From positions 1-62,379 of the forward strand of contig JAISOF010000002.1 in the NCBI GenBank assembly GCA_031275815.1: 62,379 nucleotides of DNA, written 5' to 3'. Below are positions 19,001 to 21,036 of this stretch, one piece after another. Below the pieces are notes generated by a model that was given only the letters and a program-made list of their open reading frames with translations, had not been told where the DNA came from and searched no databases. The position numbers were made by a program, and so were the translations under genes. Position 1 is the stretch's first letter. Each line of letters starts with the position of its first letter. The stretch is from Candidatus Nomurabacteria bacterium. Its GTDB lineage: Bacteria; Patescibacteriota; Saccharimonadia; Saccharimonadales; Saccharimonadaceae.

Positions 19001-21036
19001 CACGGGGTTGGTCGCCGTGTTAGAGTTCACGGGGTCGCAAGCTTGGTCTGGCGTGACCGCGCCGACTGCCGCGCCACCGAGGTTGACGGCACAAATGCCG
19101 TTTTCGGAGGTGGCGGTTTCAGTGGAGCCAGCCGCCATGGCTGGTTTGACTGGGGTTGGGGGGTCGCCGACACAATCGGCGGTTTCGGTAGCGCTACATG
19201 GGTCGCAACATCTAGCATCGGATGCTTTTAAGTGATCTAAATCAGGTATAGGACAAGGTGGGTCGGGTTTGGGCTTACATCCTTCAACATAATCTGCGCT
19301 AATATATCCTCTGTCTTTCCATGGGTATGCAGTACCGGCAGGAATCATTTCATACGGCCACACCCTCTTATCTTCCCACCCCTCTGGCGCCCAAGTCGCA
19401 TGAATAGTGCAAGTATCCCCCGACTTCACCCAAAACCTTAACTGGAATATTCCACTTGAAGAGTTGGCGCCTGTGCTGAGTGCCAGACGGATAGAAGCGG
19501 ACGTTCCACCAGCGCTGCTTTCGCTAGTTTTGATACTGGCACCAATTCCTGTGGCATCATAGCCAAAATACATCTTGCCGCTGTCGCTCCCGCTGGTGCC
19601 AGTGTTATTTGCGAACTCCCAGCCTCCGGACAACTCAACTTTGACATAATTATGGGTCATGCAATTGTATTGAACATTGACGTTTGGGGCGGTGCCAGAT
19701 TTGCTTTGACAACCATATAAGCTGTATCCGGGCCAATCCACGGAGATGGTGTATGGTACGGTGACATAGGCGGAGGGAATGGGATTATCATACGGCGAAA
19801 AATACACCTCAAAGGCTTTGGCGTGATTTCCATAGACTCCTCCTGAGAGCAAGTCGGTGCAGTCGTCCACGACCGGCGCCGCCACAGCTGTGGAAGACAG
19901 CGGGTTGGTATGCGGCAAAAGCGATAAACCTTGCCCGCCAAACAATGCTCGGTGCTGTTTTTTGATTGAATTAATCAAGCTGTCATAAGACGCAATTTCG
20001 CCTCCCGTCGCCTCCAAGCGCAAAATGGAAATTGTGCCGTCGCGTGCTGTGATGACGCCGCTATTTTGACCAATTTCTTTCAAGCTTTCTGCGACCTCAT
20101 TCTTCAACACTTGTTCGCCAAAATAATCCGGCAATTCGTCAGGAGCGGAGCTGTCGTTATAAGCAACTCCCTCTGTAATTGTTTCGAGTTTCGCCACCGT
20201 CAAAAGCTGGCTTTTCGCCCACAGCCAGTTCTGTTCATCGTCATAATTTTCATCTGGCGAACAAATAGGGTTGGATTTTGCGGTTTTGTTGACGTAGTCG
20301 CAAGTGGCTTTGGCGGCAATTTCTGTGGCGGGAGCACCAGAGTCAAAAAGTGGCAACAATTCATCAGAAAACCATTCTTGGACCGCTTTTACGCGTTCTT
20401 CAACAAACTCACCATCTTCGTCCGTGAAGTAGCGGTCGTAGTATTGGACAAATACACTGAGTATCTGCTTGCTACCAATCAAGCAATCTTTCAACTTGTC
20501 TTTATAAACTTCATTTTCCGCACGAATGCGCACGGGGTTCGACTGGCTGTATGACCCATATTTTTGGTCTAAAACTTGTTCGGGGTTATCGTCTACCGCA
20601 ACTTGGTTGGAACTTTGCAAAATATCCAAAGCCGTCACCTGCACATTGCAATGGTCGGGTTTGGCATAATATTTCAGCATGGCGTTCAAAACAAGGTCGT
20701 CTCCGGCAATCTCGGCTAAGCTTTTCTCCTCAGTACTGAACACCAACCCAAGGTTTTGGTCTGTTATCTGTTGCAAGGCTTTTTCATAACTTTCAATATC
20801 TTGTCGGGTGATGAGCGTATCGCCAACAATGGCTTCAGGGTTGATAGCGTTTTTCGTGAATACGAACGCTGTGAGGGTCACCGCCACCAACCCCAACAAG
20901 ATACCAGTTATCTTGAGAAATCTCTTCTTTTGTTTTTGTCTTTCTTGCTCTAATTGTCCGAAAAGGTTATTCGCGGACGAAACTCTCTCTCTCTCTCTCT
21001 CTCTCTCTCTCTCTGGTTAATCGCAGTTAATCGCAT
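16085..21036 (-). CDS. Very large membrane-anchored surface protein, phase-variable start (assembled OFF)
   Basis: The uninterrupted frame covers 16085-20899 and continues upstream, open, through the AG tract. The only good start is ATG 21036 (ribosome site GGGAG, promoter upstream), which is out of frame by one AG unit; as assembled it gives a peptide of about 28 residues ending at a TAG near 20950. With one unit fewer the protein has ~1650 residues: MRLTAINQ, an Arg-Glu repeat, a charged cytoplasmic segment (LEQERQKQKKRFLK), a transmembrane helix, then ~300 residues recalling SurA/PpiC-type N-terminal helices, then a long Cys-, Gly- and Asn-rich extracellular part. The C-terminus (ITYTNEALSSIYDIPQ, IDAWLMVGLKGGNGTINTC, LRADAYLWAY, final EVAPRY) is of a type I associate with CPR envelope proteins of unknown function. 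A weak TTG at 20899 is the only other start. Confidence 0.75.
20983..21014 (-). repeat. AG/CT dinucleotide microsatellite (16 units) just inside a start codon
   Basis: 32 nt of CT on the plus strand, read as AG on the coding strand, starting 21 nt after ATG 21036. All three frames through it are open (alternating Arg-Glu), so slippage changes only the frame downstream. Sixteen units are present; 15 would join the ATG to the large frame. Confidence 0.95.

What the first reader, a model, noticed from the sequence alone, without database searches (positions are those of the whole stretch)
20899..21036. Large surface protein controlled by an AG microsatellite at its start codon
The giant surface frame ending at 16085 stays open upstream to a 32-nt AG tract. 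The only well-placed start, ATG 21036 with promoter and ribosome site, is one AG unit out of frame, and its product ends after about 28 residues. All frames through the tract are open (Arg-Glu), so gain or loss of units would switch the protein on or off. This is the classical layout of slipped-strand phase variation, here in an apparent CPR bacterium.
Basis: partly seen in the sequence, partly recalled or inferred. Interest (0 to 1): 0.9.

Follow-up and report, generated by a model that had tools for sequence, protein, structure and literature searches.

The report
AG-repeat on/off switches for surface proteins
A tiny host-dependent bacterium (Saccharibacteria) appears to carry about 30 hypermutable AG repeats at the starts of its large surface-protein genes, so that random copying slips can switch each protein on or off; such a set was not known for this bacterial group in the papers I could search.

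Summary
The window holds a second tract with the same start leader (43592-43639, also OFF). The genome (1.07 Mb, 16S with TM7 probe sites) holds about 30 AG/CT tracts; 353 kb of it contain 31 AG tracts of at least 6 units and no other dinucleotide repeat. 29 of 30 tracts sit at the 5' end of, or just before, a long gene, mostly surface-type; 10 of 29 callable loci are ON (one third). A tract-free paralogue starts normally where the tract would be, and the OFF gene is under purifying selection. In five loci the tract is in a short leader ORF that, in one phase only, ends at the downstream start (coupling). Of 379 other phylum genomes only 7 have even one comparable tract. In another genus, two genomes 99.4% identical over 3 kb differ by one gap: the tract before a pilin gene. 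Unproven: read-level length mixture and protein expression.

The parts
21094..21122 (-). sigma70-type promoter TTGACA (21117-21122), 17-nt spacer, TATAAG (21094-21099)
   Evidence: read directly; 11 of 12 consensus positions
21034..21047 (-). Shine-Dalgarno GGGAG (21043-21047) and start codon ATG (21034-21036)
   Evidence: the ATGCGATT[A/C][A/G]CC leader recurs at 8 other loci
21016..21035 (-). 10-bp direct duplication TGCGATTAAC in the leader; the other leaders have one copy; it adds 10 nt (+1 mod 3)
   Evidence: TRF; compare leaders
20983..21014 (-). (AG)16 phase-switch tract, (Arg-Glu)n in coding frames
20950..21036 (-). ORF actually read from the ATG in the assembled state: 28 aa, OFF
16085..20980 (-). 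switched gene: membrane-anchored protein of about 1.63 kaa; N-terminal helix/TM, SurA/PrsA-like domain (about residues 50-350 after the tract), large secreted C-terminal region. The TTG at 20899 is not the likely start
   Evidence: dN/dS about 0.14-0.16 against paralogues
43592..43639 (+). second switch of the same kind: ATGCGATTAGCC(AG)18
43642..45660 (+). surface protein (672 aa) controlled by the second tract; the ATG product is 21 aa, OFF
13638..15338 (-). tract-free gene with a similar N-terminal anchor and NNQTITTTQD motif (566 aa, FISUMP-type domain), an internal control with an ordinary ATG

Best explanation
The AG tract is a slipped-strand contingency switch. Transcription starts at the promoter at 21094-21122; ribosomes start at ATG 21036 and read through the Arg-Glu tract. 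With 15 or 18 units they enter the 1.6-kaa frame and make a membrane-anchored, SurA-like surface protein; with 16 (as assembled) or 17 they do not, and the product is short. Replication slippage changes unit number. The locus is one of about 30 AG/CT tracts in this Saccharibacteria genome, nearly all at surface-type genes, in three layouts: (i) an SD-led leader ATGCGATTARCC(AG)n; (ii) a start close behind the -10 box followed by (CT)n coding Ser-Leu before the membrane segment; (iii) (CT)n in a short leader ORF that in one of three phases ends at the start codon of the downstream gene, a likely translational-coupling switch. Shown: sequence, layout, frames, distribution, homology. Inferred: slippage in this population, expression, surface location, coupling, and the role (changing the surface towards host cell, phage or gut environment).
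For: Tract, start and frames; 0 expected by chance. About 30 tracts in the genome. AG is the only dinucleotide repeat: 31 AG tracts of 6 or more units versus 0 AC/AT/CG in 353 kb. 24 tracts lead into an open frame of at least 133 aa in one direction only; 5 more precede an SD-ATG gene. Current state ON at AG 6/14, CT-fused 4/10, leader-ORF 0/5 = 10/29 (counted by hand). 23 of the 24 downstream proteins have a hydrophobic segment near the N-terminus, and many have adhesin-type domains: TIG/IPT, SdrD_B, ALK/LTK Gly-rich, Chlam_PMP repeats, Laminin_G_3, Fib_succ_major. The tract-free paralogue operon on C32 starts MAILELFEREENQQTKKRRNFLL, homologous to the residues just 3' of the tract in the C31, C39 and window genes; homologues in other genera align over the Lys-rich/TM segment upstream of TTG 20899. 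dN/dS 0.14-0.16. No MutS in this genome or 40 relatives, with 11 of 14 controls ringing. The same genus (G012) has at least 12 tracts in 0.5 Mb. G104 and G116 are 99.4% identical over 3 kb with one gap, the CT tract (12 vs 14 units) before a type IV pilin-like gene, which changes whether the leader frame joins the pilin frame.
Against: No reads, proteomics or second isolate of this species were available; unit numbers come from one metagenome-type assembly and may be wrong by a unit, so each ON/OFF call is provisional. MutS is absent from all relatives checked, so it does not explain why this genus alone has so many tracts. One AG-class gene (C33:59384, 1,299 codons, GNAT domain) has no N-terminal membrane segment, so not every target is a surface protein. 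Frameshifting at the tract could leak expression from OFF states. The one direct length difference seen is in another genus, at a locus with an internal ATG after the tract.
Confidence: 0.9

Rival explanations
1. The giant gene is translated from a start downstream of the tract (TTG 20899), so the tract is irrelevant to its reading frame.
For: TTG 20899 is the first start codon in the frame after the tract.
Against: It would cut off the Lys/Arg-rich segment and part of the membrane helix, which are conserved in paralogues and in homologues of other genera; no clear Shine-Dalgarno is visible in front of it; the promoter, SD and ATG lie upstream of the tract and recur at sister loci.
Confidence: 0.04
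2. Assembly error: the true tract is in frame and fixed, and the out-of-frame state is a consensus artefact.
For: Dinucleotide tracts are prone to sequencing and assembly errors; several contigs end at or near tracts.
Against: The tracts are 16-66 nt, within short-read length; both in-frame and out-of-frame states occur, at 10/29, close to the random one third; errors do not create 30 AG tracts at one kind of gene and position.
Confidence: 0.04
3. The gene is a pseudogene that has drifted out of frame.
For: It cannot be translated from its ATG as assembled.
Against: 1,631 codons without a stop; dN/dS 0.14-0.16 with changes concentrated at third codon positions; intact promoter and SD.
Confidence: 0.03
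4. Programmed ribosomal or transcriptional slippage at the AG tract lets the protein be made at a steady low level whatever the tract length.
For: Long repeats can make polymerase or ribosome slip (general knowledge); all frames through the tract are open.
Against: Unit numbers differ widely between loci (8 to 33) and phases look random, which suggests no fixed frameshift signal; it would add leak to phase variation rather than replace it.
Confidence: 0.1

Closest known systems
Helicobacter pylori oipA (CT repeats in the signal-peptide region; PMC10564699)
   Same: Dinucleotide tract at the N-terminal coding end of a surface protein; unit number decides in-frame or early stop.
   Different: Here about 30 loci share the repeat type, nine share a near-identical start leader, the AG strand is used as well as CT, and some loci seem to act by translational coupling; different phylum.
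Neisseria opa genes (pentamer repeats in the leader peptide; from memory)
   Same: A repeat in the leader coding region switches members of a surface-protein family independently.
   Different: Pentanucleotide versus dinucleotide; opa genes are close paralogues, whereas these targets are diverse families with a shared tract module.
Haemophilus influenzae, Campylobacter and Helicobacter phasomes (PMC2651432, PMC6321876, PMC2823697)
   Same: Many SSR contingency loci in a small host-adapted genome, mostly surface functions.
   Different: Those rest mainly on tetranucleotide or homopolymeric tracts; here AG only, in a bacterium of the presumed episymbiotic CPR.
Gracilibacterium BD1-5 hypervariable PTD-repeat surface protein (PMC6851277)
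   Same: A CPR bacterium with a variable repeat in a surface protein.
   Different: That is a 9-mer coding repeat without an on/off frame switch; no microsatellite switch was found in the passages read.

Membership tests
SSR (slipped-strand) translational phase-variable locus | Perfect short repeat tract far longer than chance | tested here: met
   (AG)16 and (AG)18; 0 in shuffles
SSR (slipped-strand) translational phase-variable locus | Tract between start codon and main frame; unit not a multiple of 3, so length sets the frame | tested here: met
   15 or 18 units ON, 16 or 17 OFF
SSR (slipped-strand) translational phase-variable locus | Open frame downstream intact in the OFF state and under selection | tested here: met
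   dN/dS 0.14-0.16
SSR (slipped-strand) translational phase-variable locus | Tract length varies between close relatives or within a population | tested here: inconclusive
   Seen once, in another genus (G104 vs G116); no reads or second strain for this species
SSR (slipped-strand) translational phase-variable locus | Expression follows tract length | not testable with these tools
   needs reporter or proteomics
SurA/PrsA/PpiD foldase family (N-terminal domain of the giant protein) | SurA-type N-terminal domain | tested here: inconclusive
   SurA_N_3 in 7 of 10 family members, best 5.6e-05, but the window member only 0.03 and below the Pfam cut-off; the top fold hits are SurA-like proteins, with low TM-scores
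SurA/PrsA/PpiD foldase family (N-terminal domain of the giant protein) | Parvulin PPIase domain | tested here: not met
   No parvulin/rotamase domain in the window protein; one weak Rotamase_2 hit (E 0.004) in one homologue; so SurA-like, not filed as a PPIase
Saccharibacteria (TM7) | TM7-specific 16S probe sites (probe sequences from memory) | tested here: met
   TM7905 and TM7567 exact, TM7305 one mismatch

The most novel reading that the evidence does not exclude
A genus of Saccharibacteria has built a combinatorial surface switchboard of about 30 AG/CT contingency loci, partly by copying a portable start-codon/tract cassette onto unrelated surface genes, and including a second type of switch in which tract length decides whether a leader peptide ends at the next gene's start codon (phase-variable translational coupling).
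Probability: 0.7. Interest if true: 0.85.

Novelty: new variant of a known kind. Interest (0 to 1): 0.78.

Why it matters
Saccharibacteria are thought to live attached to other bacteria, and how they deal with changing hosts, phages or a gut environment is largely open. A large set of random surface switches would give one small genome a huge number of surface states, would predict cell-to-cell differences in attachment, and can be tested from existing reads. It also warns that such genes will be annotated as truncated or with wrong starts, and that assemblies can break at these tracts.

Tried and rejected
Leader pattern in the named genome collection: no hits (near-identical records may be left out there). 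PDB sequence searches with the giant protein and both domain alignments found nothing useful. The C-terminal structure model was poor (pLDDT 41) and was not searched. NCBIfam gave nothing for the giant protein. Papers: no SSR phase variation reported for Saccharibacteria/CPR in the library, and none combining phase variation, translational coupling and repeat tract; the library is incomplete. Missing mismatch repair as the cause of the genus-specific expansion was rejected, since all relatives checked lack MutS too. C8:94 could not be classified (contig end).

Full report
OBSERVATION. On the minus strand the window reads TTGACA-17-TATAAG, GGGAG, 6 nt, ATG (21036), TGCGATTAAC twice, C, (AG)16 at 20983-21014. 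Translation from this ATG stops after 28 residues; the 1,631-codon frame that ends at 16085 stays open up through the tract and is closed by TAA immediately 5' of it, so no other in-frame start is available upstream. From the arithmetic, 15 or 18 units put the ATG in frame; 16 and 17 do not. Dinucleotide shuffles of the window never give such a tract.

A SECOND SWITCH IN THE WINDOW. At 43592 the same leader recurs: ATGCGATTAGCC(AG)18, followed by a 672-codon surface-protein frame, also out of frame (21-aa product). A tract-free gene with a similar N-terminal part lies at 13638-15338.

THE WHOLE GENOME. The window is contig C20 of a 1.07-Mb genome with 43 contigs. Pattern searches in both phases and inspection gave 30 AG/CT tracts of 8 or more units (one interrupted tract on C29 counted once). 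In 353 kb of its sequence (chosen around tracts) AG is the only dinucleotide repeat: 31 tracts of 6 or more units against none of AC, AT or CG, and almost no other microsatellite among those tested. 24 tracts lead directly into an open frame of 133-1,722 codons in one direction only (those at contig ends are incomplete). Five more (C2, C7, C24 end, C34, C43) sit in a short leader ORF 42-87 nt before an SD-ATG gene, with an N-terminal hydrophobic segment where enough sequence is held. One (C8) is at a contig end and unclassified.

LAYOUTS. AG class (14 loci): usually a sigma70-like promoter, an SD and an ATG 12 nt before the tract; nine loci share ATGCGATT[A/C][A/G]CC, counting this locus, where a 10-bp duplication pushes the ATG to -22. 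CT class (10 loci): in most, the ATG follows the -10-like box by a few nucleotides (perhaps leaderless mRNA, inferred), and the tract codes Ser-Leu before the membrane segment. Leader-ORF class (5 loci): in one of the three possible phases the leader stop overlaps the downstream start as ATGA (C2, C7, C24 end, C34) or by 14 nt (C43); as assembled, all five stop 27-45 nt upstream. Another phase of C7 overlaps by 17 nt and one of C34 stops 1 nt before the start, so two phases could be permissive there. Termination-reinitiation is the natural reading, but it is inferred; genes that start ATGA favour such overlaps by chance.

STATE OF THE SWITCHES. Taking the best start at each locus, AG 6/14, CT 4/10 and leader-ORF 0/5 are ON: 10/29, close to one third (hand count). 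This is what free-running dinucleotide switches should show in a snapshot. Tract lengths come from the assembly and single calls may be wrong.

WHY THE TRACT MATTERS FOR THIS GENE. Three loci (window, C31, C39) have tracts before homologous N-termini; a fourth operon (C32) has no tract and starts MAILELFEREENQQTKKRRNFLL, aligning to the residues just 3' of the tracts (strong for C39 and C31, weak, E 0.005, for the window gene). Homologues in other genera align over the Lys-rich and membrane segment upstream of TTG 20899, and G003's homologue has a shorter AG run near its start, in frame. So the protein most likely begins at the tract. The C-terminal 467 codons compared with C31 give dN 0.20, dS 1.44; w is 0.14-0.16 with both paralogues; dS is high, so w is approximate. 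It is not a decaying gene.

WHAT IS SWITCHED. The giant protein has an N-terminal membrane helix and a domain of about 300 residues whose family matches SurA_N_3 in 7 of 10 members and whose model (good for residues 40-340 of the modelled piece) finds SurA-like structures on top, with low TM-scores; no parvulin domain. The rest is a large, presumably secreted region without Pfam match, found as a separate gene in the C31/C32/C39 operons. Other switched proteins carry TIG/IPT, SdrD_B, ALK/LTK glycine-rich, Chlam_PMP repeat, Laminin_G_3, List-Bact repeat and Fib_succ_major domains. One AG-class target (C33:59384) is a GNAT-containing protein without a membrane segment.

WHO HAS IT. The 16S gene carries the TM7905 and TM7567 probe sites exactly (probe sequences from memory), so this is Saccharibacteria, although NCBI titles its same-genus relative 'Nomurabacteria'. 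G012 has at least 12 tracts in 0.5 Mb. Counting one phase of the pattern only, 15 tracts of 10 or more units are in this genome, while 7 of the other 379 phylum genomes have one each; in the family, 12 of 149 non-genus genomes have 1-2 of 9 or more units. In other genera several of these lone tracts lie before type IV pilin-like genes. For G104 and G116, 3 kb around the tract are 99.4% identical with one gap, the tract: 12 and 14 units; in G116 the leader frame runs into the pilin frame, in G104 it stops. That is direct evidence that such tracts change length in this family.

MISMATCH REPAIR. No MutS_V was found in this genome or in 40 relatives. This fits unstable dinucleotide tracts but cannot explain why this genus expanded them.

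KNOWN KINDS. The mechanism is that of H. pylori oipA and other SSR contingency loci; nothing of the kind was found for Saccharibacteria or CPR in the searched papers, the nearest being a coding-repeat hypervariation in a Gracilibacterium. Hence 'new variant of a known kind': a known mechanism in a new lineage, unusually numerous, AG-only, with a repeated start cassette and a probable coupling-type switch.

Noticed in passing
window 3262-3280, 31048-31066 (inside the gatA-like gene), 37120-37138: Dispersed 19-bp palindrome TGTTGTAAWWWTTACAACA: 28 copies in this genome, 9 in G003, 3 in G012, at most 1 in 22 other relatives; several copies lie just 5' of CT tracts. Could be a small mobile palindrome, a protein-binding site or an uptake signal.
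   Followed up: partly
L092, L093, L096, L086 (other genera): CT tracts in front of type IV pilin-like genes; G104 and G116 differ in tract length by 2 units in otherwise 99.4% identical DNA.
   Followed up: partly
L079 (C34), L065 (C7), L084 (C43), L064 (C2), L070 (C24 end): CT tract in a leader ORF whose stop overlaps the next gene's ATG as ATGA in only one of three phases (four of five loci): possible phase-variable translational coupling.
   Followed up: partly
L078:6359-10318 (C33:59384): AG-tract gene for a 1,319-aa protein with a C-terminal GNAT domain and no N-terminal membrane segment, currently in frame; not an obvious surface protein.
   Followed up: no
window 21203-22645: Gene upstream of the switch encodes a secreted-looking 480-aa protein that resembles copper-amine-oxidase-N plus transglutaminase-like proteins (impression from the sequence, not searched).
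   Followed up: no
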